Below, piece by piece: positions 27,101-60,100 of a DNA stretch of 64,000 nt. A program made the translations under genes and the position numbers. The DNA is from Otis tarda (Eukaryota; Chordata; Aves; Otidiformes; Otididae), in assembly GCA_026413225.1 (NCBI GenBank), contig CM048553.1, positions 140,376,690 through 140,440,689 of the forward strand. Reading direction: 5' to 3'. The notes under the pieces were generated by a model. It was not told where the DNA came from. It ran no database searches and saw only the letters and a list, made by a program, of their open reading frames with translations. Position 1 is the stretch's first letter; every line of letters starts with the position of its first letter.

Positions 27101-30100
27101 AGATTTGGGAATTGTGGTGGTTTGTATATTAGTAATAAATGTGTAACTCTGATAATCATTCCAAAGACCAGATAAATAGCATGTATCTCAAAACCACGTT
27201 TTTTTTTTTTCCACAAGTACCACACATACCACATCTTAAGTTATTTATCAGGCTTCTGTTGTGGCTGCTAGAAGAAGGTTATTGTTAATATCTATTCCCT
27301 AAATTTTGAGCTTTGTCAGCCTAGCACAATAAGGAGCACATCAATCCCTAGTGGTTGTTGAGCAATATAGATTATTTTCCACATAATGTTCTCTGAGAAG
27401 TAATTAACCTATATATTATAGAAGTCACATACAAGCAATGCTCCAGTGGAAAGAAAACATCAAGGAGATTTCTTAATTCCCGAATACTGATCTGGAGAAA
27501 ATTCAGCAATGAATTTGACAGAATGGGTCCACTATTCTTTTTCTTTCTTACTGTCTCAGTCTGTTGTGTTTTACTGCTTACTATTAGAGACATAAAATAC
27601 AAACAGATTAAAAGTAGAGTCAGAAAGACTTGTAGTGCAGAGTGTAGCTCGGGTCAGCTCCCAAGTACTGAACTTCGGAGATGCATGACCTCAGTGTTGT
27701 CATATATTGCTTGTATGTTCCTCAACATTGATAACCAAGCAAGCAAGATTCTTCATCAAATTGTTTTCTAGTAATTCTTCTTTAGTATTGTACTGTGTGG
27801 TGATTTTCTTCATTCAAGAAATTGAATGTTCTCTAGAACGGTTTGTACTTAAATTCCACTTATTTTCTAAATTTGAATGTAGTAGATTAGTTTCATTGTC
27901 TTCTTGGGACCACTAAGTAATTATTGTTTCCAGATACTCTATTGTGGTTTTTTAATTTTTTTTATATTTCCATTCCACATGTAATTTCATGTCCAAAAAC
28001 ATGCCACTGATGTCAACCAGACAGAAAACACCTAAATTCCTACTTTTTTTTTTAGGAATAAATCTGTAGTACTTTTTGTTAAGGATTTTTTTTACAATAT
28101 TACAGGCTTAAGCTTCCATTTTTGTCTTTGCTGTCAACACTTAATTTGAAATGTCTAAATTACTTCAGTAAAATTTTCTACACCTTTTTTTTTTTAAGTT
28201 ATGGCCACAAATAAGTAAGATCGACAGTTAATAACCATTTTCTTTTTTTTTTTCTTTCAGTGCCCCATATGTGCAGTACAGTTGAACATCACTGTGATCA
28301 CTTCTGCATAAACACTCCTGGCTCCTATGTATGCAGATGTAAACAAGGATACATTCTCAATGCTGACCAGAAGACTTGCAGCAGTATGTTATCTTTCTTA
28401 ACTTTTCTGCTTCGTGCTCCCAAAAAGTGCTTAACATCACATACTCTTTCTGTTGAGCTTATAAAGAAGGACTGAGCTCACTATATAATTAATGGTAATA
28501 ATTGAAAGAGTCTGAAAAGGTGAAGCTGTAATTCTTTTTCTTTTTTTAATGTAAATGAAGTTCTCTTAAAACTTTCTGAAATACATCAAGCTCATTTTTA
28601 TACACAGCTCTGCAGAGGTACAGTGTAACTACATAAAATTGCATTTGAATTTTATTGGTGTAATAACTTTAACAATGAAGCAACAATCAAAGAAAGAACT
28701 ACTTTATTATCTCACATGAAATGAATCCAGCTACTTTAGTAACTTCTCTAGATAGCAACCAGGACTAAATAGTACAGAGAGGTGCAATGAACCCCATACT
28801 AGAGAACTGTGAAATAACTTGCCATTTTAGAAAGCTCTTCCTGTTTGCTACTTGAAGCATAAGGGTTTGCAATCATTCAAAGAATAGTTTCAAAAATCTT
28901 GCTTATGCTTTATTTTCCTACTTTAAAAGGATTGACTTTTTTCAGTTTTAAGTAATTGGCTTTGTAGTTTATAATAACAAACTGTACTTCACTTTAATTG
29001 TGATCTTTGTAAGCAGCATTTCTTTTTGTCCATTTTAACTTGCTTCCTCGTAATTAACAGCAGGCTACATCAGATGGGTATGCCAAATTTATTTCTGTAT
29101 CCACCGTTATTTTACAGAAGTTATGTAATACTATTTTTAATTACTTGTGGAAAATGTACTTGCTAAAAATACAGTTTCTTATCCCGTGACAGTGCATGGA
29201 TTCAAGTGACATTTACCAAACTGGTTTTAGCCAGAAGAAAAATTTTGGAAAACGTCTCTTCAAAAAGCTGGAGGAGACAGTCATGGTGAGAGCATAGGAT
29301 GTACGCCTCACAACTGATAATTTAAAATTAAGGTGAAGGATGCAGGCTGGAATCCTATCCTTGTGTTTGAACTCGCACATGTTCCACATCTCAGGAGAGT
29401 GCTGTAAAACAATCAGGTAGCTTGGGATGAGAGGGTTCTTAGTCTCTCTTGCTTAGTGTTGTATTTTATATCAAATACTGAGCACTGAAACAGCAAGAGT
29501 GTATCAGTACCTGAGGTGACTCTGCTGCTTGGGGATTAGTGTCCTTACATGCGCAGTGAAACACACGGGTTCAGTCAGAGCGTCAGTATATAGGAATGGG
29601 AACAAAAGAGTGTTGGCACCGGAGTGATTTGGGCATTCTTGCAGCGCTGCATGGAAGTGTCTTCAGACCCTTTGGGCTACAGTAGGAAACTGCTTTTGGG
29701 CTGTTCACCTCCTATGCTGTTGAGCTGTGGGATGAGTTACTTTTAGGAATCTCTGTTTTCTAGTCCTTCTCACCAGCATCCTTCACCAAATGTAGACGTT
29801 TATCATATGCATGTCTGTGAATTGTAGGGGAATGTTTTGTGTTAAGTGGAACAAATGTAACACTTTATTTGTGTTTTTGTTTCCTCCAGAAGATGAAAAA
29901 AAAAAAAAAAATCAATCCAATCTGGAATATTTCCTAATTATTATTTGGTTTAGCAGCTGAGCCAAGACAAGAATAGTGACAAGAACAATTTTTCACACAG
30001 GCTGTTTTCTCAGCTTCCACATATTTGCTATAGCTCTTCAGAAAGAGAGAGGTCAGAATCCCAAATGATGGCTCCAGCTATGTAATCACATTTCAATAAT

Positions 30101-33100
30101 GTTCTCTAACCTATTATTTTCATTGTGTCCTTCTTAAAATGCTTCTAATTTAAAACTTTTTTATCCTTCAAACTTTTCTTTTAAACTCTCCTCATACTAT
30201 TAATTTTCTTAAAGAATTTTTAAGAAAAAAATTCTTTTGCTTTCAGTTTTCTGTAAATTATTTGAAATTCAGTTTCTCTCTTTTCGTAATTTCCTCTCAC
30301 ACGTTTTCCTCATCCTCAGCCCAATATAAATTTTGACAATTGAAATTTTTCTTGTGAGTTATTTTTTAAAAAAATAATTACAAGTATTAAAAATTCTTTC
30401 TTTATTGTGTCTTCTTTTTTATTGTGTTACATTTCCGTAGTTTTTATCAGCCAGTAGTTCGCCTTTTGGGCACTGCAGTACTTCAAATTACAGATTAATT
30501 TCCAGTAGAGTTTTGGAATTGTAGTTGTAGTTTTCCTACTGGTGACTCATGCACAGTAGCCCTCAGTATGTTCCCCTTCTGCCATTTTTTTAAGCCCATA
30601 GCTGCATTGCTTTACTTTTTTTTTTTTACCTATGACTCAGTGTTGTATTGGTTTTTCCAACTTACCTGTCACACGTTTTGCTTGACTGTGTACTTGCTTT
30701 GATCATCAATCAGATGATACTAGATTGCAGTTTGCTAAATAGTAAAGGAGAAATGAGTAATTCAGTGTGTTTGTAGCCTACTTCTATTGGACTTTTTTCT
30801 ATGTCACCAAACCATAAACTAATTTTAGCAATTAGCACTGGAAATCTAATATTGAGAGCCATCAAACTGGCCTTAAATATGGCTAGGATGGTGCAAATCA
30901 AGACAAGTAACAGAGTTCATGAGGAAAGAGGACCAAGCCTGGACAAGCTGGACAGCTTATGTCTGGAGGTTAGGGGAAGCATGGTGATAGAAAAACCCGT
31001 GATCTGTGACCATTTTAGTTACCTTCATTGGCTGCTGAGTGTCCACAACTGCACAGAGATAACATGTTCCTCAGTTGACCTCTAAATAAAATAGATCTTT
31101 GCCATGTTTATGTTTAGTGCAATCAACATAAACCAGATGTATTTAAGGTTTGGATGTATGTCAGCTCTTTCACGAGCAAGTAGTTTCCTTACAGATATAT
31201 TTTAACACTTTAAGTTCTTAAAAGCCGTTAACCAAATGGCTTCAATCAGCAAAGAATTGACAACTTTGCTTCAGGCTGAAAAAGGGTGCATTCTCTTTTG
31301 AACAGATGGTAGTTTTGTTCCTTGATACATTTCGTTATAACACTATTTCTGAAAAAAAAAATTTTCCTTGCGTTGAAGGAAAACAATCTACTGTATTGGT
31401 GATTTGTTGTTTTCCACTTGAAAAAAAAAACCAACCAAAATCCCAACTCGACTATCTTTCAGAACAAAACTAGGGAAAAAAAAAAGTTGTTTTGTTTGAC
31501 TTGAAATAGTCTTACATTTATTTCTTTAGGATGGTTTTGCATCCATGCAAAGGATGCTCCTTTCACGTACTCTGGTCTAACTTTTCTAGAGAAGAGTGGA
31601 TGTGTCAGATAATGGCTGTTCTTTAGTCACTACACTGTACTTGTTTGTTTAACAATCTCCTCTGTTCTTCTCTAGAGATACTAAAATCTTACATTAATAC
31701 ACAATATAGTACAAAAGAGGAAATATAGCTGAAACAAGCTGGGAAATTATCTATTTATGAGTGTTTATACTGGAACAAGAGAGCTGGATGAATGTTTATG
31801 CTGTTCATCATGCCGCTTGATATGAAGCAGACAGCTATAAAAGAAAATTCGTATTTTCTTGACTAGTTTCCTTAAACATGTTTCAAAATCCTTTTTTTTT
31901 TGTAGCTGTAAGTGATCATTTATGTGTTGAGCAGTCTTTGGGCCTGATCCTGAGCAACACAAACTACTCTGCTTTCCAGCGATTTCACCGGGGAGACTTG
32001 GGGTTCTCAGAAAGCTTTAGTCTGTTGAAAAGAAAGCCCGATGTGCTTCATTCAGTCAGGTGCTGAACTGACTTTGTTTGTTGTAGTAATTTTTCTAATG
32101 ATGTCTTTTGCTTGGCAGGGGTAACTTGCTATGGTATTTTGCACAAAAATGAAAAATTATAAAACTCAGAAATGAAATATCCCTAAGTCTTTTGGTGTCG
32201 TGTTTTCCTTTTCTTTCCCTTTCCCAACCTCATTATCATTTATCTGGGAGGTTTATGTAAAAAAGGAAAAAAAGAGAGAAATAAACCAAATTTTTTTTCT
32301 TTTTCTTTTTTTTTTGTTTCAAAAAACCCTGAAGAATACCCTTCAAACTTTTCAGAGAAACATACAGTCAAGCAACTCTACTAGGCACCATTGGCCCATC
32401 AATGGTTGTTGCTTTCAGCTGAAGGAATGAGCTCCTCAGCTTTGAGTGATCGTTCCTGCTGACGTAAGAGTTTCACTGTTTGACGGAACATTGGCATGAT
32501 TTCTCCTAAAATTAGCTCGTCTCTAAAGAGCTGTTTATAGCTTCCTGAAATTTATTTTTGATATATAGTCTACCCATGCATTATAGAAGGTCAAAGGTTT
32601 TCATATTCGTGCAATTATGTTTTGTAGCTCAGGACCTTTGTGCTGTGGAGAACCATGCCTGTGAGCAGATTTGTGTGAACACACCTGGGTCTTACGTCTG
32701 TCAGTGTTATGAAGGATATGAGCTTGATGCAAATGGAAAGAATTGTGTCGGTGAGTATGAGTTTAGCAATTCACATTTATCTCTTGACACAAACCAAAGG
32801 GAAATTCAGTGTAAACTGACATCTAGTTTAGCCATAGACAATGATGGGAAGCTGTCTTCTCCTGTATAAGTGGTAGATAAGGAAGAGTACAAATTAGCAT
32901 GTTCATAGGCCTTTACTAATAATGAATGGTGACTTGGGAAAATTGCACCAACTAATTTCACACAGAAAGTAACATTGCTGTTTTGAAACAACACACCAGA
33001 TATTTTATTCTAGATCCGTGTAGGTGGCCAGCAATGTACTGGCATGATTTATGTGGCCATTAAAAAACAAACAACGCCAGACAAACTCAGTAGCTCCTCT

Positions 33101-39100: not shown

Positions 39101-42100
39101 ACTGGAGAGACAGAAGACAGAACTAAATCAAACAAACTTTGCTACGCCCTGGTCTGCAGTGTGAACATCTGGACAGAGTTACTGACTGAGGCATGGTTTC
39201 CAGGTCTGAGAAAACATGTTGAGAAGGCTCCTGACAATCTGAGAGCTGACAAATGTTCAAAGGGTAGGAGAAATGATCCAAAACTCGTATCAAATCTGAT
39301 TTACAAACTGGTATTGAAAGTGCACTTCTTTTTGCAGAAAGGCACTTCAGGACAGAAATTATGTCAACTCTTTGGATTTTTATAGCTACTGTGTGTGACT
39401 AGTACCATAATATCTATGCATAATAGTTCTAGTTTTGTTTTTCTAATTGTACATGTTGGTCTTGTTCTTTTTCAGTTGTAGACTACTGTGCTTTGGATAA
39501 CCAAGGTTGCCAGCATGAATGTGTTAACACTGAGGACTCCTATTACTGTAGATGCCACCCAGGGTTCATTTTAAATCCAGACAAAAGAACTTGCAGAAGT
39601 AAGTTGTGATAAGGTTTAATTATGAACAGTTTGTACTACTTCTGTCTTCCAGTTCTCAGCAGTAATGCTCCCACTGGTCCTGGGAACACTCAATAATGTG
39701 TCAAGTATAGAAAATGTTGGAGTGCCCTGGAAGCCAAAGGTCTTGAAAGCAATGCAAGTTGTTTTGGGGGGTAGTTTGCCTTTTTGGGGGAGGAGGTAAG
39801 GGTAGGGGTCTCGCCTAAGAGCAGGAAGCTTTTAACATGAAACCAAGCTCCTTTTCAACAGTAAAATCCAAAAGCTTTATCTTGCATAGACTCTCTGATT
39901 ATCCAGATTTTTCAGTTGGAATATCATCTCCCTAGCTCTGTGAACACGCAAGTCTGTACAAGACAATTTATAATGAACCTGGTTTGTAAGACAAGCTAAA
40001 ATTAAACAGAGTAGTTCCACAATCAGAGGAAACATTGCAGCCTATTTTCCTATGGATTTTTCTCAAGAGGAATTTCTTTGATAGTGTGCCAAATACTATA
40101 CTGGCAATATCACTATCTTCTACCAAGCTTCCATGTTTCCACCAGGTTATAACAACTTAATTGTTTGCTTGTTTGTCAAATTTGATTGATACGAGGCTAA
40201 CAAGCTAAAAAATTCCTAGACTTAGGAGTTGGAGACTTCTACTATCTGTTTGTAGAAAGCCTTTTTCACTGCATCCTTTTGGTTGGGTGAGGTAACAGAC
40301 TCCACCACCGCATTCCCAGTGTCATTTCCCCTCTGATCTTGACCAGAAACTCTCAGCAGGCACATCTGTGGTTTCATGTTGGATCTCTGTGGAATGGAGA
40401 TCTTTAACATATAACAAAAAGTACACTGCTTCTCAAGGGAGTACAAGCTGGGAGCCAAAGATGGCTACAAGGCAAGCAGGGTCAGTAACCCCTCTGATAA
40501 GGCCTTTGGTCCCAAAGTACCCAAAGAAGAACAAAACAGGTCCTATGACAGTAACCAGGCTCAGCCAACAGTTCAGTGATCACCAAACAAGTCCATAGTT
40601 TCAAGAGAGGTCTATATTCCATTCAGGAAATCAAGTCAGCCAGTCAGCAGGTCGGGATCAGCAAAACACAACGCTAGGCACAGGCATACCTACCACAGAG
40701 CTCAGGCCAAACCAAGCGTGAGAGCCTAACATTAAATGCAGCTCCGAAGCCAAGGGGCAGATGCCACAGACAAGGCTCCTCACAGCTCTTTGCATCTCTG
40801 CCAGGTTAACTGCATTTTGTTTTGTACTAAATGCTTTAAATTGGTTTAAAATTAAGGGAGAAAATTCCATCAGGTTGCAATTAGGTAAAAATAAAGTGAC
40901 TGGGCATGGTAGGCCATAGAGATTGATTCAGAAGGAGTAGTCAGGGAGGAATGAGCAAATACTATGTCAAATCATTCTCTTTCAAGGTGCATGTCCTGAA
41001 TCTAAGCATCAGTAGAACCTACTAAGCCACTTTTCCTTACACTTGAAATCTTCAGAGCCTTGTTAATAAAATTATGCGGAATGAAAGAACTGTGTAGCTC
41101 TTTGTGCTGCAAAAGTCAAGACACCATGAAAGCTCTTCAGAGCGAAAGTGTCCCCCACGTCCCATATGTTACGAATCATGCTGTCTTGAGTCAGAAACAA
41201 ACTTCAGATCACTGGATTTAAAATGTTTGTAAATTTAAGACCTTTAACGTAAATGTCTATGTATTTGGCTTATGTACTGAATCTCCAGGGTGATCGCCAA
41301 CTAGCCAAGACTCATGCTCACGCCAGACCACAGGCCTGGGCCTGGGGCGCCAGCTCCCAAAATCTTGTGATTGTCTCAGAATCCTGACTTTCCTTTCAAA
41401 AACAGAAAGTAAGCTGTCATGCTCATGGCTACAAAGAAAAGCTTGAAAACGTAAATGTTATCAGTACGGTCATGCGTAACTGACAAATGTTTTCCCTGGG
41501 AATTACTCCCAACTTCTTAGAATGAAATACAAGAAACACGGCTCATGAGGGCAACCCTGCCAGCACCAGCAGTACACTCTATGGAAAGGACTGGAAGAGA
41601 GCAGCAAGTTCAGATGATCAGTGAGGCAGGTAGAGGTCATTCCTAAGTTAACTATTAAGGGGACTTTTGCCAGTTTTGCTGCTCCTCTCAAGACGACAGA
41701 TGGTAGCTTCTGCTTGTACTTAGGGGTGCTGAGCCTCAACTGTTGTTCTTTAGGGAAGGCCCTTGTTTGAGTTGTGAATGGGTTCACATGAGCTGTAGCT
41801 GGTAGAGGCCACCTGTTAGTGTCCTTAATTTGGGCTGTATTAATGAAGCCCTGTGAAACGTGTTTTTAGTGTTCCCAACATAACTATTATGTTCAAGGTT
41901 CCAACTAAGGTAATAATATATGTTTTCCTAATCCTGTGGTCATCTTCAGAATCGGTTACCCAGGAAAAGCCTGTTCTGCACGTTTGAGTTGGCAAGGATT
42001 TGAGCAGGTAAATGCAACACTGAGTAGGTCCAAAAATCATACAGCTCTGTTCCTCTGGTGCACACACGAGACTTTATGGTTTCTCTTTCTTCAAGTGCAC

Positions 42101-45100
42101 TTTTGAACAAACCGTATTTTCTAATTATCTTTCTTAGTAAACAGGTAAGATATCCCTGTGTCATGTATATGTGTATGTACATATACTGTCATAAAAAGCT
42201 TTTGGTAAAGGAAATGTTCTGTAAATATATGAAGTGGACTTCATAAATAATAAAATACTCCTCTCAGGTTTTCTTGAAGTTATATTCCACTTTGTCTGTC
42301 CTGAAAATATAGGTGGTCTATTATTGCTAAGTGCTTTCATCATATATAAAGGCTCAATTGCATTAGCCCACCACACATACAAGGAAAGAACAGTTCCTGC
42401 CTCAGGAAGCCAATTACCCCTGGGAATAACAACCTCTGAATGTCACTTTTCAGGTTGTGTAATGAGGGGCGGAAAAGTGCCTGAATGTATTTAAAAGTGT
42501 GACTTACTTGATTTGTGACTTATTTATCTATTGTTAGCAGTGCTGAGGGGTTAAGACCATTCTTTCACTTGTATAAATTAATTAACTACACTGACATAAA
42601 ACTAAAAGTGATGGCCAGACACTGTATCTAAATGAATGTCAGGTTCTTTGACTTCATCAATAATGGTAAACACTGTGATAAATATCCCAGTGCTTACTGT
42701 ACAATTACTTTCTTTTTTAAGGTACTTTATACACAAGTAGTAGCTGTTTCTAGACTGCTCGTCTTCCCTTTCATGAGCTTTTTAAATGGAAAAACCACAT
42801 AGCAAACACCCAGAGCTGTTAAAACACTAAAACTCCTGATGACTTGATTGTCCTGCTTTGATCTAATTAACAGCATTCAAAAGCCTGTTTGTGTATTTAT
42901 TACAGATAATATCCAACTTGCTCTGAGTAAAATAAAGAGGCAGTTTTGATCAGAGAATGTATAGGACTTAGCTGCAAAATGTTAAGAAATAGTTAAGAAT
43001 CCAACTTCTATACTGCATGTAGTACATGTTGACATGCTGGAGGGAAGGGATGCCATCCAGAGGGGCCCTGCCAGGCTCGAGAGGTGGGCCTGTGCAAACC
43101 TCATGAAGTTCAACCAGGCCAAGCGCAAAGTCCTGCACATGGATGAGGACAATCCCAGGCACAAATACAGGCTGGGCGGAGAATGGATTGAGAGCAGCCC
43201 TGAGGAGAAGAACTTGAGAGTGCTGGTGGATGACAAGCTCAACATGAGCCAGCAATATGTGCTTGCAGCCCAGAAAGCCAACCGCATCCTGGTCTGCATC
43301 AAAAGAAGCGTGGCCAGCAGTTCAAGAGAGGTGATTCTGCCCCTCTGCTCCACTCTGTTGTGACCCCACCCTGGGTACTGCATCCAGCGCTGGAGCCCCT
43401 AACATAAGAAGGACGTGTATCTATTGGAGCACGTCCAGAGGAGGGCCCCAAAGATGATAAGAGGGCTGGAGCACCTCTCCTATGAAGACAGACTGAGAGA
43501 GTTGGGGCTGTTCAGCCTAGAGAAGAGAAGGCTCCGGGGAGACCTTATAGTGGCCTTCTACTACCTAAAGGGGGCTCATAAGAAGGATGGGGAGAAACTC
43601 TTCAGCAGGGCCTGTTGTGACAGGACAAGGGGTAATGGTTTTAAAATAGAGGGAGGTAGATTCAGACTCTGTATAAGGCAGAAATTTTTTACGATGAGGG
43701 TGGTGGAACACTGCCACAGGTTGCCCAGAGAGGTGGTTGATGCCCCATCCCTGGAAACATTCAAGGCCAGGTTGGATGGGGTTCTGAGCAACCTGATCTG
43801 GTTGAAGATGTCCCTGTTCCTTGCAAGGAGGTTGGACTAGGTGACCTTTAAAGATCCCTTCCAACCCTAACTATTCTATGATTCTGTGATTCTTTGTGCT
43901 CTGGAAGAATTCATTGAATTATAAATATCAGGTATACCTAAGTACAGCAGATAACTGGAAAAAAAAGGAACATTTTATTTTCATAGTTTGAAACAATATG
44001 GCAGAAAGTCAGACTGGTGCCTAGAAAAAGAAAAGGATAAAGAGAAGAAAACAAAGTAACTGGTTTTTACTTAGCTTATTTCTGAGGAATTATATTCCTC
44101 ACTGACACCATTTTTTTTCCCATTTAGGACCAGACTATTGTGCTCTTCAGGACCATGGCTGTGAACAGGAATGTGTTAATACAGATGATTCCTATTTCTG
44201 TCAATGCCAAGAAGGGTTTAGACTTAATCCAGATAAGAAAACATGCAAAAGTGAGTAATCCTTTGGACATAATAAAGTTCATCTGCTTTTATTTCTTAAA
44301 CCTGCTGTGAATGGTTTCCCTTCTGAAAGGATGAAAGTTTTCTCTATAGTTAGGGTTGAAACAAATCTTTCTTTATAAACTTGAATTTTAACCGGGGCAG
44401 CCATGCTGGAAAAATATACTGTTTGCTATTTTGTAGACTAGATTGTATATTAGACGTTTTCTGAAGAGATTTATGGAAACCTGAGAAGTAATATAGGAAT
44501 CAGAGTGGGTCAAAAACAAGTTCATTACTTATTTGAAACTTTCTGACCTTGTCTTGTGGAGGCACAAACAGCTTAAAAAAACTGAAATTCACCTTGCTTT
44601 GCCCAGTTTGTTTAGCCAAGGACAGATGTATTTCATAAGCTTGGGAAAGTACTAGATAGGTATTAACATGGCTATTAAAATCAACTTAAAGTCACACACT
44701 AAATCTCAGTTTCTTAAAATACTGTAAAACCAGCGTCAGCAATGCCAGGGTTCTAAACCAATCACACATACTATCTATTTTAAAAATACTTTCATGTTAC
44801 AGCTCTTCTTGAGTGGGGTCCTGGAATCACAGCAGATTTTCAGTGTAATGTTGTTAAAGTTAAGGAGAATGTATTCAGCAAAATAAACTAGCCTGATCTG
44901 GTGACTCAGTTCCTGGAGGGGAGAATTGTACTGCTGATATTTTATGAATAAGAAGTTTGCCTGGAGCAAATAATTCTATTTCTAGACACTCATAAAATTT
45001 ATCTAGGTTTGGAACTGTATTTTCTTTCAATCTTACAGATATATTCTCATGAAGCATCTTTGCCTACACAGTGCCATCTTTACAGCAATCCGTGCTATTC

Positions 45101-48100
45101 TGGTTTTTATTATTTATATGGTATTTTAATACATTCAAGTTTTTATAGATCGGATGTGCCTTGGTGAGTATAGGAGCAAAAGAACAGCATTGTGTAGAAT
45201 ATTTATTGCCAAGGATGTAATTGTGAATTAAAGGCAAATTATAATTCCTATTTGGGGTATTTTTCCTTAGCCTTAGGGGGCTTTGGATTTGGCTGTAAAC
45301 CTGGTGACATTTCCGGAATTAAGCTCCTGTTCCAAATCTTGTTATAACAAGGCTCGTGTTAGGTAAACTTGTAAAATAAAGCAGAACATTTGCATATATG
45401 CCCTCTTTATAAGTCAGGGAGAATGCGTCACTGGTGACTAACACCAGGCATTCCTCCTTCACCACGATGCATGACATCTGATGACTACAGAAGCAGGTCT
45501 ATGGGAGTCAACATGAGGTCTTGCGTAGCCAAGTATTTGCAATCTACTCTCAATTCCTCAGCTCACTATCAGCTTTAACAGGTGTCCAAAGCTCAAAATC
45601 CAGTATCGTTTAAGAAAAGTGAGTGGTTTTTAAGCCATTTTACTTCAGAAACCCTCATGGCTAGCTTGAATCTCTGCTGTTTTTCTCTTCACAGAAGTAA
45701 ACTTCTGTGCTTTAGGTCAGCATGACTGTGAACATGAATGTGTTAACATGGTAGAGTCATTTGTGTGCAAATGTCATCCTGGATACACCCAAGGACTTGA
45801 TGGCCATACGTGCAGAGTGTGTCTCATGAACTGCAGCAACTAGTCACTGCAGTGAGGCGAGGTGTGAACAGAATGAGAAAACACTCCTGGGTTCCTTTTG
45901 AGATCTTTCTCAGCTGTGCAAACCAATGTTACTGTGAAGTGCACCATGAGCCAGGCCTAGTGAAGTAATGCTATAGCAGGATCCCTGATCTCACTGATCT
46001 CTTTTAATAAGAATGTTAGTAAATGAAGGATCAGTGTTGCACCAGAAAAACCCAACAACATTGGCCACTTGATGTCACCCAGTTTTCAGAAGGTAACTTT
46101 TATTGCAGAGAACCATTTTGCACATAATCTAAAATATTAGCAGCATTTTTCCCTGATGTACTTATGACATATTTTTCCAAATGAACATTCTGTCACTGCA
46201 ATTTAAAGAAGTTGATAAGTCAGGGAGTAATTATTTTTAAATAAACTGTTTGTGATAAAGCCATATTTAAGGAAATTTGGATGTGTTGCAAGAGCTCAGA
46301 GCTTTTTAACAATTATGCATTTAGGCTATCACAAGTTGAATATCTGAAAATTAATATATCCCAGGACACTCATTGTTTTTAAAAATACTGCGCCTTCCCC
46401 TGTCTTACACTTTTTTTTACACATGTAGTGAAGCACACATGATAACCAAATTTGCAGTTATACTGATTTCTAAAGCCTGGTAATTAGCAGCTTTGTGATT
46501 ACTCCGCTCTAGTGTGTTAAAAGATTCTGCACGATAGCCCAAAGTATTTAAATGTTAAAATTCACGTTAGTGTGGCTGTTTGTGTTGTAAAAGGTGGTGA
46601 CAAACAGATGCAGTTTTTCACAGAGAATACTGGGGGTTTTTCTTTTCTTTTTTTTTTCTTCCCCACATTTTTTGTGTGTTCTGAGAAGTCACACAAGCCT
46701 GTTCATGATGATGTAAAGCCTTGGAAAAAGAAGAATGTTCCAGCTGGAACTTGCTTTAGCTAGTAAAAACCGACACCTCAGCTTCACTTGTTCAAGCCAA
46801 GGTTATCTCTATCTATGTGTAATGGCAAATCTGGACCGATTACTGCAAACTCTTTGCTTAGTTAAATAAACTAACAAACAGCAATAGTTAGAACTAAGTA
46901 ATTTTACCTTAAGTACAGATTTTTTAAAATATAATCAAATAGCTGCAGATATGCAGATGTTCACATCTGTAAATGATTTGCAAATAGAGACATACAAGAC
47001 TGTGTTTGTGTCTGAGGGAACTCCACTACTTTTGATCAAGTTAAGCTAAAGTGATTTGGGCTTACAGAACTAAAAATAGCCATTAACAAGTTGGCAATAA
47101 AATATTACGAGGAAGTTCAGCATAAAGCTTTTTTTCCAAAAATGTGCTCTTTCTGTACTTACAGAGCCAGCAGATTACATAGTACATCTGCAAGTGCACG
47201 TAGCTCATCTTGCTGCTTTGCTGTTCACTCTATGAGACAATATAATTTTTAAATCAAATTCACATCTCTCTCTTCCTTCCCTCACCCTTTATTTTTCACA
47301 CAACCAGTTGCATACAAGACAAAAATTTCTATTTTATCTTATTTGGAATAGGTAAATCAAAGAAAAGGAACATATTAAGACACTCTGACACTCATCATTT
47401 GTATCTGTCCCCCACTAGGCTTTAACTGCTTGAACCTCTTGGCAGGTTAAAATTTGAAATTGGTGATTTCTCATCCTGTTGAAAAATAATTTACTGTTTA
47501 TGAAATAATCTGAAAGCCACAATTTCTGTTTCAAGAGTTACTAATATTTATACTTTCTCTCTGAGAAAATTTTATGGTGAACAAGAGAAAGAAAGAATGA
47601 TTCTGCAGGTAAGACCAGGCGAGACTTCAAGGTTCTCCCTTCACTTTGCATTAGTTTTCCTTTGGAATTTTTGGCAAAGGCAAGCTGCACTTCATCAAGT
47701 TCGTTATCTGCCGAATAGGGTTGTTGTATTCATCTCACTTAGGTGTTGTTAATTAACTCGAGTTACTCAAATAAGTGGGGATACTGCATAAATAAAAGCT
47801 GTACTGGTCTTTTTCCCTTGTTCTGCAAAGGCATTGTGTACTAACTGCAGTGTCATAGTGTATGTATTTAAGGCTCCGGTGTGATTTCTGCAATTATTAA
47901 CACAAATCAATAGGAGTGAACCACTGTGCTGAAAGCAATCATGGCTGTGAGCAACTGTGCCTCAATACTGATGACTCCTACGTCTGCCAGTGCTCTGAAG
48001 GATTTGTCATCAATGAGGACCTAAAAACCTGCACGCGTAAGTCTTGTGAGAACCTCCTTGATCTCAGCTTGGGAAAATTTTCTGTTTTCATACAGGGAAG

Positions 48101-51100
48101 AGGATACACCTTAAATTTATTCTTACAGTCTGCATTTTGATAATACTTTTAACAATGAATTGAAAGCAGAAACAGGCAGAAAAAATTACTTAGGAAAGGA
48201 TACTTGTCAAGATGAGTGTAAATCCTCACATATTCAGAAAAGTTTTGGAAGATCTGTTCACCCCCAGGTGTTGAGGACAGTTTTTTAGTTACATGACAAA
48301 TGTATCTGACTGACTGGTCATTTTGACAGCAGCATCCCCAAGCAAACTGCGTGAGCTTACTGGGGCAGGAGATGTGGGAGTACGTCACTGAGCTTTGCAT
48401 TTTGCGTGGGAACTCTTAATAAGTGAGCAAAAGTTATTCTGACAGCTCTCCAGTGTTTATAAATGAAATTGTCATTGAGAATCATTGCAGTTTTACAAAC
48501 AACCAAATTGCCTCCTTTACTGGAAAAATAATATATAGAAAAGGCCAGAAGAAGAGGAATGTGGATGTCTGTTGACTTTTCCGGGACCTCTCTGGTGAGG
48601 TTTTGACTGTTTTTTCTACAGATTTTGGAGGTACATTACTTTTTAAGGTTGTTGAGTGATGGAGCAGCTCCACAGTTTGCTCCTTTTCATGCAGTCAGGC
48701 AACACAGTTTCAACAGGAGTCAAAGAGCAAGTGCTCAGACAAAAAAAATGATGTAGGGGAAAGGGAGGCAAATCAGCAAAAGCAATTTGTCTTTAACCTA
48801 CATACTAAGCTTTTTAGCCCCGTCAAATACCTGGACAGGCTTTACTTCTGTCTACCACTGCAGCTCTCTAAAAAGTAATGCAAAAGCAGAACAAGTGAAC
48901 ATGTGACAGGGATAGGGTCTACTAGAAAAAAATGATCTAGACATTTCTCTAAAAGAACCACTGGAAATGTAGAAACATCCAAACTGTGGAGTTTTATCAG
49001 TTTGCAAATGGAAAATCCATTTTCCTTTGTAGCAAAAAGAGTTGGTTTTTTTCCCTCTGAGTTATTTTCCTTCAGGCTGTACTTGGAGACCTCTCAGCAG
49101 CGTTAAAACAGTGCTGCGGCTTCTGGAATCCCTCTGTGCAATGGAACAGCCCTTCTGAATAGCTCTTCTTCTCGCCAGCATACCCCTCTCCTCATATATG
49201 TTTAGGAAAGAGATTTATACTATTCCTGAGCTCCAGATAAGTTGTTGAAACCCTGTGGACATTTTTAGACTGTCATGAAAAGAGTTCTGGCACTTTGGGA
49301 TTTCCTGAATGAGCAGCTGAATGGAAGGGATTAGCATTTAACATATACCACTCCTAATGGGAAAACATCTGGGAATTACAATTCTGGTGTCATATACACA
49401 GGCATAAGTATGTTAAGACAGCTGTGGGAACACCTGAATGATAAAGAGATTTCTACTCTAACAACTAATTACATAGAAGTGAGCAACACTGTATGTGCAG
49501 CCAATGCACAGTAGCAAGCACTGTCTGCAGAATCGCAGGGGTCTCTGTGTTACAGAGAAGAAACACTTAGGAAACTTGAGAAGAAAAATGGACCATATTT
49601 GACAGTACTTATCATTTGCAATTCTTTGCAAAAGCTTGAATATTCTAAGGCAAAGCCCGCTGAGGTCCCTGAGAGGTTTTCTGCTTGCTCCCACAGCAGC
49701 TGGGTCAGGTGCAGAAGTGAGTTCTGGGGACTGCCACCTACACATCAGGCCAGTTAGAGACTGGATTTAAAGAATGTTCACAAGGTAGCTTTGCCAGCAT
49801 CTTACATAAAATCATTGCTGAAGTGTTTTGTTTGCTTTTTTTCAAGTTAAATTTCTAAGTACTGAGATGTGGACTCTGTTGAGCTATGTCAAACATAGGA
49901 AAGTGTGATTTCTCAACTCTGCTTAAAGCAGCCAATGGAAAGTACACCACAAGGCTGACTTACATTTTATTGACGGTATATGTAGGTGTGTATTATCAGA
50001 TAAGGAACTGGATTATTTTTAAGCAGTTCAGTGTATTTATATTTACTTGCTTATATACCTGGAGAAGAGAAGGCTCCGGGGAGACCTTATAGCGCTCTTC
50101 CAGTACTTAAAGGGGGCTTTATAGGAAAGACAGGGAGAAACTCTTCAGCAGGGCCTGTTGTGACAGGACAAGGGGTAATGGTTTTAAAATAGAGGGAGTA
50201 GATTCAGACTTGATACAAGGAAAAAAATTTTCACAATGAGGGTGGTGGAACACTGCCACAGGTTGCCCAGAGAGGTGGTTGATGCCCCATCTCTGGAAAC
50301 ATTCAAGGCCAGGTTGGACGGGGCTCTGAGCAACCTGATCTGGTTGGAGATGTCCCTGGTCTTTGCAGGGGGCTGGACTAGATGACCTTCAAAGGTCCCT
50401 TCCAACACAAACCATTCTATGATTCTGTGAAAATACTAGGGATGAAAAATAATTGATTCATTATTTGTTACATTTTTTAAAATAATTTCAATTACTTCCA
50501 CAGGAGTTGACTATTGTGCTCTGAGTGATCATGGCTGTGAACATCTGTGTGTAAATGGTGACAGATCTTATACTTGTCAGTGTTTTGAAGGATACAGGCT
50601 TCGTAATGATGGGAAAACATGTAAACGTAAGTTATTGTTCGGCATCTCACACTTAGGTTTTTATTGCGCACATAGAAGAAATCTGTAAGGTAGGATTTGA
50701 TTGCCTAAACGTTGCCATCCAATGTCGTTTTAAATGCTCAAAGATTCCAAAAGTTCAGTTTCCTTTTTCATGTTGTATTTGTCAGCAGTATGTCAGTATC
50801 TTGGATACTCTAGGGCATCTACAGTTGCACTGGATGCATACTTCTAGGCACTCGAATTGTGCTCTAAATGTCTGTGCCATTTCAAAAGTATCCCTGAAAT
50901 TGGACTGTTGTGAATCCAAAACTGTTTCATTCTGACTTACGTCCTTATATGGAACAACTGTAATTTTCTTCTCAGATCATGGCAAAAATATGTAATCTTT
51001 CTAAAGTCTTATACAGCATGAATAAGCTTGCAATATTATTAATGGAAAGTTCATTTATTTGTCCAGCATGGGATGAGGAGGATTTCAAAAGAGAGATCAT

Positions 51101-54100
51101 AATTGCATTACATATTTGACTATATTATGCACGTACTATCAGTGGCAAATATATAAAAAACCCATGGCAGTTTTTTCTCCACTTTTGTAGTTTTGATCAC
51201 TAAGTGATCAAAGAAAGTGATTTACAGAAAAAAAAAAAGTAAAGCCATCCAAATACTACGATGACAAATGAAAAGCTCCTTATTATCACTTTGTGTATCA
51301 CAACAACACCCTACTTTGTTAGTCCATGCAGACAGAGACAAATTTTCATTGTATGAAAAAGTATTGACACTCCAGTGTTGCTAAAAGCAAGTGAAATTTT
51401 CTGTCCATGCAGAAGTCCTTACAGGAAAATTAAGAGTGTGGGAAAGAAAGCGAAAGCAAGATGTTAGTTTGTCTAATATTAATTAATAGGTTGTATTTTA
51501 TTTTATTTTGAAATATGAATTGTAGCTAAATTCTGTATCAGAAAACCCCACTGAAAATCTGCTTAACCAACTATAGTTGACAATTTGCCAGAATTTTGCA
51601 GCAGGATCATACAATCTGTCTTTCTCACTACCCATAAATACTACATACACTGAACTTTTGCAAACCTGCTTTGCAAAAAAAATGACAAACACCTTCTGAA
51701 CTTAAGCACAGGGAAAAAAAGAATAATTGTTTCAGGTTTGAGCAAGTTTATTACTGAAGATAAAAAGAAGATGGTAGAAAGATCTGTTTCACATCAGAAA
51801 GTTTACTTGAAATGTGGATGTGGGATTATATGCCTTTGGAAATCCCTGTGGGTCACTGATCTGCATGCTAGGGACACGTGGCAGTCTACAAACTCTAGAA
51901 CTGGAACAGTGCACTTTTCCATAATAGTAAGCTTGGAAAATTGGCAGGACAAAGACGTACCTTTTTGTTACAACAAAAAGAGACAGCAGGTACTCTAAAT
52001 TATTTGCAGGATTGAGTCCAGTATACTAGCAAGGGCAAGAACATCCAGTAACTGAGAATTGTAAGACTTTGAACATCTTGCCCTTAATTAACACAATTTT
52101 TTATCTATTAAATTATTCCCAGGTAAAAATATCTGCAAATCAGTCAATCATGGCTGTGAGCATATTTGTGTTAGTTCTGACAATTCCTACGTCTGCAAGT
52201 GTCGTGAGGGATTCGTATTGAGAGAAGATGGCAAGACATGCAGAAGTGAGTGACTGGTATCTATTGAACATTTTTGCATGTGCATCAGGCAAGGAAAGAA
52301 AGGAGTCTATCTCTTCTTACTGGCAAAAAACATCCTTTTGAGATCTACATTTTTGAACATGTTTTCATTCAAAACCTGTGTTCATATCATTGATTACCAG
52401 GACAAGACATCTGCAAATTAGTCAGCCATGACTGTGAACATATTTGTGTTAATGAAGATGACTCATATGTTTGCAAGTGTCATGAGGGTTTCCTGCTGAG
52501 AGAAGATGGGAAAACATGCAAAAGTAAGTACTCTGGTAATTCCTGGTAGACTTTAGGTATGTAGATTTGTAGCTTTTAGGTATGTGAAAATGTTCTAACA
52601 AATACCACTTTCGTCGTTTGCTGTTATAATACAGTAGTGTTGTTACACCTGCCAGAAACTTGTACGAGACTCTGTGGACAGAAATAGTGTGTTTTAATAG
52701 CCAGACTCATATGACTGGAGACAAAGACTCACAGTTTTTCAGGTATCAAGAGTTAGCAGTGTTTGCTGCCTAAATTTTTGCCCATTTCTTCCGATTATAT
52801 CTGTAGACCTAATAAAAGCTATTACTTCTCCCTGCATGATACATTTGCTGTAGATCTGCTTTAACCAAACACCATCAACTATTCTCAGATAAAGACATTT
52901 GCAGTTCAGTTGACCATGGCTGTGAACATGTTTGTGTTAATGCTGATGAGTCGTACATCTGCCAGTGTTATGAGGGATTTGCACTAAGGGAAGATGGAAA
53001 AACATGTAGAAGTAAGTATCCTTATCTTTAATAGAAGATTTCCTTTATAATCTGTGCATTGATAGACGTGTTTTAAATACTGGCAACTTTTTTTTTTTTT
53101 TTTTTCCCCAGATAAAGACGTTTGCAATTCTGTTGACCATGGCTGTGAGCATGTTTGTGTGAATACTGATGGTTCATACATTTGCCAGTGCTATGAGGGT
53201 TTTGTATTGAGGGAAGATGAGAAAACATGTAAAAGTAAGTTATTTGATGTTGCTGGGGTTTTTTTTTGCACTCGGGGATCTACTGAAGAAACATATTGTG
53301 GTAGAGGTAGGCCTTCTTGCAAGGGGATTTTACCTGACAAGGAGGATAAATTCTTTATTTACTAGGAGCTTATTACATTTAGCCTTGGAAATGTTTTGGA
53401 AATGTCCTCATTCATCAAACTGCAGTAAATAAAATCTAAATTATTCCTAGATAAGGACATCTGCAAATCACTCAATCATGGCTGTGAACATCTTTGTGTT
53501 AACGGTGACGATTCATACACTTGCCAATGCAATGATGGATTTGTTCTGAGGCAAGATGGGAAAACATGCCGAAGTAAGTAGCTTATGAATAAAAGAAGAA
53601 ATTTCATTTTTCTTTTATTAGGAGATTATTCGCTGATTCATAGTGGTCAGGACAGAATATTCTTCTCTATCAATCATAAGATTTCTGTGAGTTAACTATT
53701 GTTTAGAGTAAGGATATATTTCAGAAAATCAGCCAATTTTAAGGTTTGAATGTAGCTTTTAAAATGAAAACTTCATGTCTAGATTGAGTATATCGAATTT
53801 TAATCTTGAGTGTAGGATGTCGTTGCATTTTACTTTGATGTTTTGAAGTCCTAACTGCTGCTGTGTTGTTCTGTGTATATTCACGCAGACCATGACTTAA
53901 CCTGTTCCTTAGCCTCTTAATGTGTCTTTGTGTAAATGATAAGCAGATTAAACTCCTTCAGGCTCTTTATATGTTTTTCAGTCTTTTCACAAGTTTCTTC
54001 TTGCTACCCTAAGACCTCTGCTATTTATCAGCATCCTTGTGGGGACACCACAATAGGACAAAGTCTTTTGTTAGAAGATGGGTCCAGGGTAGAGGAGCTG

Positions 54101-57100
54101 TAACCCGCCTAATTCTTATTCGAATCTACCTATCTTTTTTTAATCTTTTGGTTTTTTTATTTTAATCTGTCTTTTTTATGACCAAAGATAGCATTAGTCT
54201 GTGACCAAAATATTCTGCTAGCACTCGTGTTCAGCCAGTTATCTATTTACCATGATCATAAGCCACTTAAGACTCTCAGTCACATAGATGTCCCACATCC
54301 TGTAAATGCAGCCTTCATTCTTTGTTTCTAAATGTATCACCTTAGTTCTGGCTGTCTTAATATACATATGGTTTGCTGTTATCCAGCTTGCAAAAAGATT
54401 CATGTCTCCTTATATTAGCAGCTGTTCTATTTTTATTTGCCATTCTCTCAAAATTGGAGTAACCTACAAACTTTGTCAGTAATTATATTGTATTTTCTTT
54501 TGGGTTGTTCATAAAAATATTAAGTATTAGAGGAGGAGGGCAAATTCTTAGAAAGCAAGCCACTTGATGTTCCCCCATTTACAATTTATTCTGAAGACCT
54601 CTCTAGCCAGTGTTTATCCATATAATGTTGATTCTGTGGCCTATTTCTTAATCAAAATACATACCAAGACTGCTGCCTTACTGAATGCTCCCTTGTATGA
54701 ACAGCGTGAGCTTTATGAACCAGCCTCATAATCAATTTTAAAAGATACTTATGTAATTCTTCAGGATTGATATTATTTTTTGTTATTTGATTTTAGTCTG
54801 AATAAAGTTTCACATTGTCTAGTCCATTATTTTAATGCAGATCAATGTCAGACTGACAGGCTTACAGTGAACTACTCATCCTTTTCAAACAGTGCAACAA
54901 CAGTATTTTTTCTGTGCATGTGCACGCATTGGGGATGGAAACTGCTCAGTCTTTTGGGGCTTCCTCAGAGTTCTGAGAGTTACTGAAAAATAACACTAAG
55001 CATCCAAGGTGTTCATCAGACAGCCGTTTTACAGCTCTTCACTGCAAGTTATCTGGAGTTACCGAGTTAAAAATGTGGGTGTTCAGTAGGTGCTGTGTGA
55101 CCTACTTCTTGGCTGATGAAACTCTTTGACAGTATCATCAGTAGCCTATTTCATAAGTTCAGATGTGAACATACTAAATACCTTTGCCATTTCTGCATTA
55201 AGATTGGCATTTCTACCATTTCTATCTAATAGTTAACTACACATTATTAGAAAGCTTTTTGTTTCTAATAGTCTTTAACTCACTCATACTATCCTTTATT
55301 TTGTTGACCATGCATCCGCTTGTCCTTTATCTTACTATTTCAATGTTTTCCAATTCCTAATATTTTCATGTTCAGTAAATACTGTGAATAGTCCTTTCTT
55401 TCAATCATTATTGAAATCTTACAGCTGTTTTCTATTGTAATTTCTAAATAAGGTTGCTTTTTTAGATCTATTCTTTTAGATCATGGAACTACATTTTTGG
55501 GAGTATCTATTAAAATAAATACTACCATCATCATTCACTATTTTTTAATTATTTCCCCTCCCATCTCAAAATATTTTGGCAAAATACTTTGGCTTTCAGC
55601 ATGTAAAATTCATCCTTTTGAAGTAATTTCCATATCTCCTGCTGGTTTGTATTTGATTCTGTTTATAAATAATAAGTGTATTTGAGTGGCACACAGCTGT
55701 GTATAAGCTGATCATTTCTTCTTTGTTTGCTATAACAGCATCTAGATTAGATTGCTGTCTTGAATGTAATGCTTGTTGAGTTAGAAGATTGTCCTCTGTA
55801 ATATTTTTTGACATTTTTGTATTGCCAGCATGAGACCTCCAGGTGATTTGGCTCAGACTGAAGTTCTTGTGAAAATAGTTTTTCTTCCCTACACATTAAA
55901 TCTAGGTGTTTTGCTGAAGAGTCAGTCTGAACTTGGCTGTCAGTAGTGTTCTACTTTCTATGTAAAGGTAGTTCTCCATTAGCAATTGGAAATAATTTCT
56001 TTTGTGTTGCAGTGAAAAAGAAACAGGGAATGCTGATAGATGGCTCCATTTCCTCCTGTTCTTTCTCCTCATCTGTCCTTCTTGAAGTTTTAACCAACGG
56101 GTTTTAACATTGCAGTCATATAAATCCCTCCATCAATTTTCAGCAATAACAGTTAGATATTATTTACCCTCTTAGTAGTTCCTATTCTTCTGGGGTTTGT
56201 TTATGGAGACTCTTGGCATTGATGTAAGAACCTTAAAGAATTCTTTTGCTTCATGTCCTGTGGTATTTTGCTTAATTTTCTTTTCACCAGCATGAATTTG
56301 TGCTAAATGACTGTACTAAATTATTCCCTCCTTTCATTCTTACTGCTTTTAATGTAAAGTCTTCCTCCTTAATGTAATCAGATTAATCCTAAAATGACTT
56401 ATTGTCAGTGGGAGGCCATCCAAACTGTGCAGTTCTTTCTGCTCAGATGGTAGAAAACTCATGCTCCACGTAAGCTAAACTGCCTGTCATTTAACTAGTC
56501 AGAGATTTGCTTTCAGTTTGCAGGCTTCCATATTTCTTTGCTTACAGGATTATCCCTGCAGTCTTTGTATTTATTAAAAAAAAAAGTTTAACTAGCAAAC
56601 CACATTAAATATTATCTGACTGTTCCCAGGCAAGGATATTTGCAAATCAGTTAACCATGGCTGTGAACATGCTTGTGTTAACGCTGGTGATTCATTTGTT
56701 TGTAAGTGTCAGGAGGGATTTCTGCTAAGAGAAGATGGAAAAACATGCAAAAGTAAGTAGCCTGATATTTATCAGCATACTTTTTATCTGCAGCTCATGC
56801 TCATGTAGAAATGCATTAACCAGCAAGAGCTGTCATCTGTTTTCAGATAAAGATCTCTGCAAATCAGTCAACCATGGCTGTGAACATATTTGTGTTAATA
56901 TTGATGATTCGTATATCTGCAAATGCCGTGATGGCTTCCTACTGAGGGAAGATGGGAAAACCTGCAGAAGTAAGTAGCTTGAGAACTTAATTTGATGAAT
57001 TACACATACAATCGAGGCCTTTGCTGATAGATGTTGACTGCCAACTGTTCCGTTTGCAGACAAGAATGTTTGCAATTCAGTCAACCACGGCTGTGAACAA

Positions 57101-60100
57101 GTTTGTGTGAATACTGAAGATTCCTACATGTGCAAGTGTCATGAAAAATTCATACTGAAGGAAGACGGAAAGACATGTAGATGTGAGTAGCCTGAGCTAT
57201 AAAAATATGTTTTTATTTGAAGCTTTTAAGTGTTGTGTCTGTGAGTGTTTGCACATCTGTATGTTTATTTGTAATTTCCAAACATTTGAGCTGGTTAATA
57301 AAAGATATTATCTCTCCCTAACGAACCTCACCTCACAAACACCATCCACTCTTCTCAGATAAAGATGTTTGCAACTCAGTTGACCATGGCTGTGAACATA
57401 TTTGTGTTAATACTGATGATTCCTATATTTGCAAGTGTCATGAGGACTTCATGCTGAGGGAAGATGGAAAAAGTTGTAGGAGTAAGTTGTTTAATCTTTG
57501 TTTTGTACTTCTTGATCTGTTAATGAAACACACTATGCAATAGAAGTGTGTTATTTGTGTCTTTAATATAGAACAGTTCATGGAAGTGAGCTCCTTCTTA
57601 GAAGAGTATTGCCATATTTTTTACATTTTGTGAAAGCTATTTGCCTAGCTAACTGTGCTAAATACAATTTTCATTATTCCAAGGTAAAAATATCTGCAAA
57701 ACAGTCAACCATGGTTGTGAACATGTCTGTGTTCCAACTGGCGATTCATACACGTGTCAGTGTCACGAGGGATTTATATTGAGGCGGGACAAGAAAACAT
57801 GCAAGAGTGAGTAGCTGAAACTTTTATGGGGAATGTTTTTTTCAGTCATAAAAGAAGTAACAGACTTAATTTTACTCAAAGCTTGTTCATGCCAGTTTTG
57901 CATTTGAGAAATGGTCTAACAAGGAAATTCTCTTAACAATTCTCAGATAAAGACCTGTGTAAGTCCATTGACCATGGCTGTGAACATGTGTGCATTAATA
58001 ATAACAATTCATACAGCTGTCAGTGCAATGAGGGTTTTATCCTGCGACAAGATGGGAAAACATGTCGAAGTAAGTAACTGCATATGTCTGTCAGCCTCTC
58101 TTCTCTGGCATTGCTACGTAAACGAACAAAGATGCTATACTCCTTTGCCATACATTTTTCAAGTATCATGTTTGGAGTCTTTGAATTTATAAATATGTTA
58201 AATAGAATACATACAAATATTTCTATTTTTCCTAGATCAAGATGTCTGCAAATCAGTTGCCCATGGTTGTGAACATATTTGTGTTAATAATGACAATTCT
58301 TACATCTGCAAATGCCAGGAGGGATATGTACTAAAAGAGGATCAGAAAACATGCAGAAGTAAGTACATTTTATTTAGAAAGCATTTGTTTCTTTGATTCC
58401 AAAATTACTTGACCTCACTTCAAATGACTCACTTAAAAAATGCCTCATTTCAAAAATGATAAAATATCTGAAAGCCCAAACCATATGTGAAGTGTGATGG
58501 AAAATGTCTTGGATAATTAACATGATGCTCTCATAAGCAAAAAACTAACAAATTGGAACAGTTGTTTTGGTATAGCATCAAGTACAATAATAATTCTTTC
58601 CAAACATCAGGAAAAAAGCCAAAGTGAAATCTTATTATCAAGGAATGTGCACTTTAATCTGCTTCATATACTGTAGAGCTTCTATCTTTATATACTCCTT
58701 TTAAAAATATCATTAATTCTATTTGCTTATCTTCTAACATGACATGCTTTGAGTCTGACATGCCTTTACCTCATCACCCCTTAATACTTGGAGGAGAAAC
58801 TCTTACTGGAACTCAGTAAAAACATTTATTCTGCAAAAAAATGGATGCCTTAGCTGGGGAGACTATTAAGACCAAAAGAATGGTAGCATATTAGTAGCTG
58901 ATCTCAATCCTAACTAAAATAATTCACCGTGAACTGCTGCCCTATTTTGACTTATGCAATGATATTGAGGCCGTTCTGATACTCATGTTCACTGCATTTC
59001 CATCACCTGAGTGCATGTGACACATCTTTTCCTCATATGACTGCAGAAAGGAATTATTGAACAGCAGTTCTAAAATAGAGTTATTCTCTAAGAAGAAAAG
59101 CCCAGGCTTTAAAGCTGAAAATTCCTTATTTCTACACTGACTTGGTAACAGACATCTTCAATAATTTCTGCAGTCAAAGCAGAAATAAATGTGGAAAGAA
59201 TGTATGTGGAGTTCTCTTTTATGGCAGATCTACTCTGATAGCTTTCACTTTTGAGGTATCTAAAGATCCAAAATCCTCTCTTAAGGCCCTCCAGACAATC
59301 ACCTTCAGGATCTGTTAGTCTACTCTGCAGTCAGCTTAAATAATAAGAAATGTTACAGACATTTCCAGTTACCCTGTACAACACAGAGGTATTTAGAAAT
59401 CTTAGAAACCAGAAGAAAAAAGCTTTGCTTTTTTGTTTCCATGATAGAAGGCAGAGATGTAGAGCACTTGCAGCAGCTTTGAGAAGTAATCTAGCTCATG
59501 GCATATGCTTGAGGCAGAATCATAATATATGTATCTAATAATATCTGATAGATGTTTCAGTAATGTTTCAAAAACTCTCTAATGACAGAGTACGATTGCA
59601 GTGTTCCCGGTAGTTTGTTATCATGCTGTTACCTTTATAATGTTTTTTTCCCTAACAAGCAGATGTCTTTGCAGGAGATGAAGCCATTTGCTGCCTTTTC
59701 TGTTCAATGAGAACAACAGATTTATTGTCTTGTTTAAAACAATACCCTTATACATCTTGGAATGGTGTTATCATGCTTCATATACATCTTTCCTTTCCTT
59801 AAGCAAACAATCTCTGCTCCTTCAAGCTTTCTTCATCTGTCTTGCTTTCTAAATATCTCATTGCTCTTGCTCTGAAGCTGGGGACTCTCCAGTTTGTCTT
59901 TAAGGGTGATACTCAAAGCTTAGCACTGTATGCATCTGAGATGTACAAATTACTGAACACAGCTGCACAATTCTCTCTTGTATTGTGCTTACGGCATTCT
60001 TACTATACAAACATCAGAGATGAGTGGAGGTCAAAGTTCATTTGGTCCCTTAGTATGGCAAATTCCCCCTGGAAGTTACAGTGATCAAATAGGAGCTAAG

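What the first reader, a model, noticed from the sequence alone, without database searches (positions are those of the whole stretch)
28261..58358. MATN2 with nineteen EGF modules instead of the ten known in mammals
Nineteen exons of exactly 123 nt, each with six EGF cysteines and phase 1/1, lie between the two vWA exons (EGF5 counted at its expected end). All have clean acceptors, and all except EGF5 have clean GT donors. I recall ten in human and mouse matrilin-2. Judged by signature words, EGF1-8 and EGF19 pair one-to-one with mammalian modules 1-8 and 10, so about nine modules are extra and of the module-9 type. The predicted rod between the vWA domains would be nearly twice as long, which could change the spacing between ligand-binding sites in the matrix.
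Basis: partly seen in the sequence, partly recalled or inferred. Interest (0 to 1): 0.82.

Follow-up and report, generated by a model that had tools for sequence, protein, structure and literature searches.

The report
Bird-like matrilin-2 with doubled EGF rod
In this bird-like genome the gene for matrilin-2, a connective-tissue linker protein, carries nineteen copies of a small building block where mammals have ten, through old copying of the last few blocks that selection has kept intact.

Summary
Nineteen phase 1/1, six-cysteine EGF exons of 123 nt lie on the + strand between the two vWA exons of a matrilin-2 gene. EGF5 alone lacks a usable in-frame donor. The gene continues past the window to its coiled-coil end. 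The other matrilins of the same genome have ordinary counts, 4, 4 and 1, so the expansion is confined to MATN2. Mammalian matrilin-2 has ten modules in print (PMC6271824, passages).

EGF8-19 form one clade in the exon DNA tree, though not in the weaker protein tree. Their exons are 64-85% identical, their introns mostly not alignable, and median dN/dS is about 0.13. That speaks against a recent false duplication and for old tandem exon duplication kept by purifying selection.

One correction: against recalled mammalian sequence, EGF8 does not pair with module 8. EGF8-19 all look like modules 9/10, so the change is about 2 to 12. The copies differ about as much as bird and mammal do at EGF1-7, so the array is probably older than living birds. 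Other birds, reptiles and transcripts could not be tested. It is a new variant of a known protein; the longer rod is inferred.

The parts
9065..9197 (+). first coding exon: ATG, signal-peptide-like stretch, ends G|GTAAGT (phase 1)
   Evidence: read; the choice of ATG is inferred, no transcript seen
23188..23757 (+). vWA1 exon (570 nt, phase 1/1)
   Evidence: Pfam VWA E 6.8e-55; boundaries
28261..28383 (+). EGF1 exon
   Evidence: Pfam FXa_inhibition 6.5e-14
32628..32750 (+). EGF2 exon
39476..39598 (+). EGF3 exon
44128..44250 (+). EGF4 exon
45695..45817 (+). EGF5 exon; no GT at its expected end, only a weak in-frame GT at 126 nt
47914..48036 (+). EGF6 exon
50504..50626 (+). EGF7 exon
52123..52245 (+). 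EGF8 exon, first of the expanded clade
52401..52523 (+). EGF9 exon, expanded clade
52889..53011 (+). EGF10 exon, expanded clade
   Evidence: Pfam FXa_inhibition 3e-11
53112..53234 (+). EGF11 exon, expanded clade
53451..53573 (+). EGF12 exon, expanded clade
56630..56752 (+). EGF13 exon, expanded clade
56847..56969 (+). EGF14 exon, expanded clade
57060..57182 (+). EGF15 exon, expanded clade
57359..57481 (+). EGF16 exon, expanded clade
57684..57806 (+). EGF17 exon, expanded clade
57947..58069 (+). EGF18 exon, expanded clade
58236..58358 (+). EGF19 exon, expanded clade
   Evidence: Pfam FXa_inhibition 6e-12
61192..61605 (+). first exon of vWA2 (414 nt, phase 1/1); the rest of the gene lies beyond the window in the same contig
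   Evidence: Pfam VWA 2.3e-42; boundaries

Best explanation
This is a real, intact-looking matrilin-2 gene of a bird-like genome. Its EGF array grew from about ten to nineteen modules by repeated tandem duplication of one- and two-exon units at the 3' end of the array. Every unit is a symmetric phase 1/1 exon of 123 nt, so unequal crossing-over in the short introns adds a module without breaking the frame. All twelve units EGF8-19 descend from the stock that in mammals gives modules 9 and 10. The duplications are old, and purifying selection has since kept the modules open. The likely product is a matrilin-2 arm whose EGF rod between vWA1 and vWA2 is nearly twice the mammalian length (18 modules if EGF5 is skipped), joined into oligomers by the usual coiled coil, so that the outer vWA ligand site sits farther from the hub. 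Shown: exon anatomy, one DNA clade, selection, restriction to MATN2. Inferred: duplication mechanism and age, splicing, longer rod, effect on ligand spacing.
For: 19 exons, 0 in 60 random windows. EGF8-19 are one clade in the exon DNA tree, 98/97. 66 of 66 pairs have dN below dS (17 of these with saturated dS), median ratio 0.13 over the other 49; mismatches per codon position 0.21/0.14/0.41. A crude neutral simulation gives 0.00225 per exon for staying open with six cysteines, yet all 19 copies that an HMM finds are intact. Exons are 64-85% identical, while only 4 of 45 intron pairs exceed z 3. Five self-matches run exon-intron-exon, for example EGF10-11 with EGF13-14 (72.8% over 367) and EGF11-12 with EGF16-17 (67.8% over 491); intron pairs 11/16 (z 4.0) and 10/14 (z 3.7) agree. 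MATN4, MATN3 and MATN1 loci of the same genome have 4, 4 and 1 EGF exons. The EGF8-12 block matches nothing outside this locus (10 of 10 matches inside).
Against: No transcript or protein was seen. EGF5's donor is bad, so splicing around it may be disturbed. The protein trees do not recover EGF8-19 as a clade (long row M4_4 falls inside), and with recalled mammalian modules the split EGF8-19 + 8-10 against the rest also fails; 40 columns resolve little. The age estimate rests on saturated dS and on recalled mammalian sequence; gene conversion or relaxed constraint could bias it either way.
Confidence: 0.87

Rival explanations
1. Assembly artefact: haplotype copies or a mis-joined tandem repeat inflated the exon number.
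For: Tandem arrays are classic places for misassembly; read depth could not be examined. EGF5's lost donor could be a one-base error.
Against: No two copies exceed 85.4% nt identity, and introns are mostly unalignable (4 of 45 pairs with z over 3), whereas false copies would be nearly identical. TRF finds no exon-length array there. The contig is 164.8 Mb long, and the 10 genome matches to the block all lie in this locus.
Confidence: 0.02
2. The exons are genomic but mostly not used: alternative or constitutive skipping leaves a matrilin-2 of about ten modules.
For: All are symmetric 1/1 exons, so skipping keeps the frame; EGF5 has no good donor; introns of 90-365 nt between neighbours.
Against: Purifying selection on all of EGF8-19 and intact splice signals: donors of the 18 other exons match 5-8 of 9 consensus positions. 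Unused exons would decay.
Confidence: 0.08
3. Not an expansion in this lineage but a loss in mammals: the amniote ancestor already had a long array and mammals trimmed it to ten.
For: Mean aa identity among EGF8-19 is 0.685, near the 201 of 280 (0.72) between EGF1-7 and recalled mammalian modules 1-7; median dS is 1.25, minimum 0.63. Recalled modules 9 and 10 pair with each other inside an unresolved EGF8-19 cluster (89/85).
Against: Needs outgroups that I could not reach. Divergence among paralogues can run faster than among orthologues.
Confidence: 0.25

Closest known systems
Mammalian matrilin-2 (MATN2)
   Same: vWA1, EGF array, vWA2, coiled coil; EGF1, 2, 6 and 7 are reciprocal best matches of the recalled mammalian modules 1, 2, 6 and 7
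   Different: nineteen EGF exons instead of ten (ten: PMC6271824, passages); twelve module-9/10-type modules instead of two; no one-to-one partner found for mammalian module 8
Matrilin-4, -3 and -1 loci of the same genome
   Same: same EGF exon size and phase, six cysteines, vWA exons
   Different: 4, 4 and 1 EGF exons; names assigned by vWA similarity, EGF counts and recalled synteny. Printed counts: matrilin-3 four, matrilin-1 one (PMC2427018, passages)
Tenascins (precedent for changing EGF numbers)
   Same: predicted EGF counts differ between vertebrates, e.g. TNC 13 in a newt, 15 in the whale shark, 18 in a lungfish (PMC11401434, passages)
   Different: other gene family and other EGF type

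Membership tests
matrilin-2 | two vWA domains flanking an EGF array | tested here: met
   Pfam VWA on both sides, 19 EGF exons between
matrilin-2 | C-terminal coiled-coil segment | tested here: met
   two exons with heptad-like text ending in a stop about 8 kb past the window, on the same strand; read by eye, no coiled-coil predictor run
matrilin-2 | unique segment between vWA2 and coiled coil | not tested
   exons between about 64.45 and 69.5 kb were not modelled
matrilin-2 | ten EGF modules as in mammals | tested here: not met
   nineteen. The family as a whole has a variable number (PMC7013758, passages), so this separates the variant from the mammalian form, not from the family
matrilin-2 | module order and identity orthologous to mammalian MATN2 | tested here: inconclusive
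   supported for modules 1, 2, 6, 7, partly for 3-5, not for 8, ambiguous for 9 and 10; mammalian sequence recalled, not retrieved
EGF module (Pfam FXa_inhibition / EGF) | six cysteines with EGF spacing and profile match | tested here: met
   six cysteines in 19 of 19; Pfam scanned for 3 of 19 (EGF1, 10, 19), all above the FXa_inhibition cut-off
calcium-binding EGF | D/N-x-D/N-E/Q before the first cysteine (recalled consensus) | tested here: not met
   residues before the first cysteine read by eye, such as K-D-I-C, lack E/Q there (listing); EGF_CA is below its cut-off for EGF10 but above it for EGF1 and EGF19

The most novel reading that the evidence does not exclude
A long matrilin-2 with about twelve module-9/10-type EGF repeats is the ancestral sauropsid form, older than crown birds and perhaps as old as amniotes, so that the ten-module mammalian protein, the only one studied, is the shortened or unexpanded form and bird matrix uses a matrilin-2 with nearly double reach.
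Probability: 0.5. Interest if true: 0.55.

Novelty: new variant of a known kind. Interest (0 to 1): 0.42.

Why it matters
Matrilin-2 is the largest matrilin and joins collagen and non-collagen matrix proteins. A rod nearly doubled by old, selected exon duplication is a natural experiment on how spacer length between ligand-binding vWA domains matters. It also warns that mammalian domain counts do not carry over to birds. In print the number of EGF repeats does not affect matrilin assembly (PMC2427018, passages), which points to reach rather than oligomerisation as the property changed. The nine paper searches made here listed no paper that describes a bird or reptile matrilin-2 with this many modules. 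Predicted proteins in sequence databases, which I could not search, may already show it.

Tried and rejected
Decayed or hidden further EGF exons: none found by tblastn or nhmmer. Recent duplication or assembly doubling: rejected on divergence. A clean module-by-module history of EGF8-19: the DNA tree resolves only weak pairs inside the clade (EGF9/13, 12/18, 15/16), so no order of events is claimed. Solved structures: the EGF and vWA queries matched LDL-receptor-family, coagulation-factor, collagen VI and integrin chains, with no matrilin among the rows shown. The content of the 3-kb gap between EGF12 and EGF13 was asked of the genome three times and never answered. A paper on hen uterus lists chicken MATN2 among calcium-binding EGF proteins but gives no module count in the passages seen (PMC3999959).

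Full report
What is there. That it is a bird is my inference from the CR1-like reverse-transcriptase frames and from size; no call names it. A matrilin-2 gene runs along the + strand: a signal-peptide-like first exon (9065-9197), one vWA1 exon (23188-23757), nineteen EGF exons (28261-58358) and the first vWA2 exon (61192-61605). Past the window come the second vWA2 exon (about 64.3 kb) and two coiled-coil exons (about 69.5 and 72.3 kb, ending in a stop). All boundaries from vWA1 through vWA2 are phase 1.

The count. A scan with splice signals and six cysteines gives 19 places on + and none on -; at exactly 123 nt with GT it gives 19, 0, and 0 in 60 random windows. For EGF5 that strict hit uses a reading shifted by three bases. 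At its expected end EGF5 runs into TGTGTC; the in-frame GT at 126 nt matches 2 of 9 consensus positions, while the better-looking ones at 122 (6 of 9) and 124 (5 of 9) shift the frame. So 19 exons are encoded, 18 with sound signals. EGF5 may be skipped in frame, spliced weakly, or carry a one-base error or real mutation. Its coding part is open to 45817 with all six cysteines.

Internal control. The vWA2 exon found 34 matches in the genome. I fetched three loci that I take to be MATN4 (C21), MATN3 (C3) and MATN1 (C24), by vWA similarity and recalled synteny, and the scanner found 4, 4 and 1 EGF exons there. Four for matrilin-3 and one for matrilin-1 are printed (PMC2427018, passages); four for matrilin-4 is recalled. 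Ten for matrilin-2 is printed (PMC6271824, passages). The surplus is therefore specific to MATN2.

How it arose. In the exon DNA tree of 28 modules (19 here, 9 from the three other loci) EGF8-19 are one side of a branch with 98/97 support. The protein tree of the same 28 does not recover this, because a long matrilin-4 row falls inside; 40 columns resolve little. Introns EGF7-8 to EGF18-19 were considered: the ten under 600 nt are 90-365 nt long, and of their 45 pairs 4 exceed z 3. Some self-matches run through exon-intron-exon (five by my reading), and intron pairs 11/16 and 10/14 support two of them, so units of one and two exons with their introns were copied in tandem. The order of events is not resolved.

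Selection and age. Among the 66 pairs of EGF8-19, dN is below dS in all (17 of them with saturated dS), the median ratio is 0.13 over the other 49, and third codon positions differ at 0.41 against 0.21 and 0.14. Median dS of the 49 is 1.25, minimum 0.63. Exon identity is 0.64-0.85, mean 0.745; amino-acid identity 0.525-0.825, mean 0.685. EGF1-7 and mammalian modules 1-7 as I recall them agree at 201 of 280 residues (0.72), taking EGF3 with module 4 and EGF4 with module 3. Copies inside the array thus differ about as much as bird and mammal do. With recalled neutral rates of about 2e-9 per site and year even the least diverged pair would be over 100 million years old. This suggests an array older than living birds; gene conversion would make the true age greater, relaxed constraint smaller.

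Which modules are extra. Against recalled mammalian modules (a lead, not a test), reciprocal best pairs exist for 1, 2, 6 and 7. EGF5's best is module 5, but module 5's best is EGF3. EGF3 and EGF4 cross with modules 4 and 3. All twelve of EGF8-19 have module 9 (7 of 12) or 10 (5 of 12) as best; module 8's best is EGF7, and EGF8 ranks fourth for it. A better wording: seven N-terminal modules are shared, mammals then have module 8 plus two of the 9/10 type, and this gene has twelve of that type. In the tree the group EGF8-19 with modules 8-10 needs three changes, with module 8 among the EGF3-7 types.

What it does. Inferred: matrilin arms meet in a coiled coil, and vWA domains bind ligands. Nine more EGF modules lengthen the link between vWA1 and the hub. 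Printed work says EGF number does not affect matrilin assembly (PMC2427018, passages), so reach and flexibility are the likelier effect. By eye, calcium ligands before the first cysteine look incomplete, so the rod may be more flexible than a fibrillin-type rod; Pfam's EGF_CA is nonetheless above its cut-off for EGF1 and EGF19. The Asx-hydroxylation pattern (recalled) is met by 17 of 19 modules.

Novelty. EGF number differs between vertebrates in tenascins (PMC11401434, passages), so this kind of change is familiar. Nine paper searches listed no description of this variant; most subscription journals and all protein databases of birds were out of reach. I file it as a new variant of a known kind, quite possibly already visible in automatic annotation.

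Noticed in passing
window 19111-19617 (-) and 42986-43840 (+): Open frames that read like CR1 LINE reverse-transcriptase fragments (recognised from memory), one in the intron before vWA1 and one between EGF3 and EGF4.
   Followed up: no
window 45695-45850: EGF5 lacks a sound in-frame donor although its coding part is open: exon loss in progress, a real splice mutation, or a one-base sequence error.
   Followed up: partly
window 53574-56629: A 3,056-nt intron splits the otherwise tight EGF8-19 cluster into 5 and 7 exons; no decayed EGF exon was found in it, and its origin is unknown (searches unanswered).
   Followed up: partly
genome C3 near 115783868, loci L025-L026: The four EGF modules of the matrilin-3 locus are alike in their C-terminal halves (YEGYTLNPDK or FEGYTLNPDK in all four), which hints at later duplication or gene conversion there too.
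   Followed up: no
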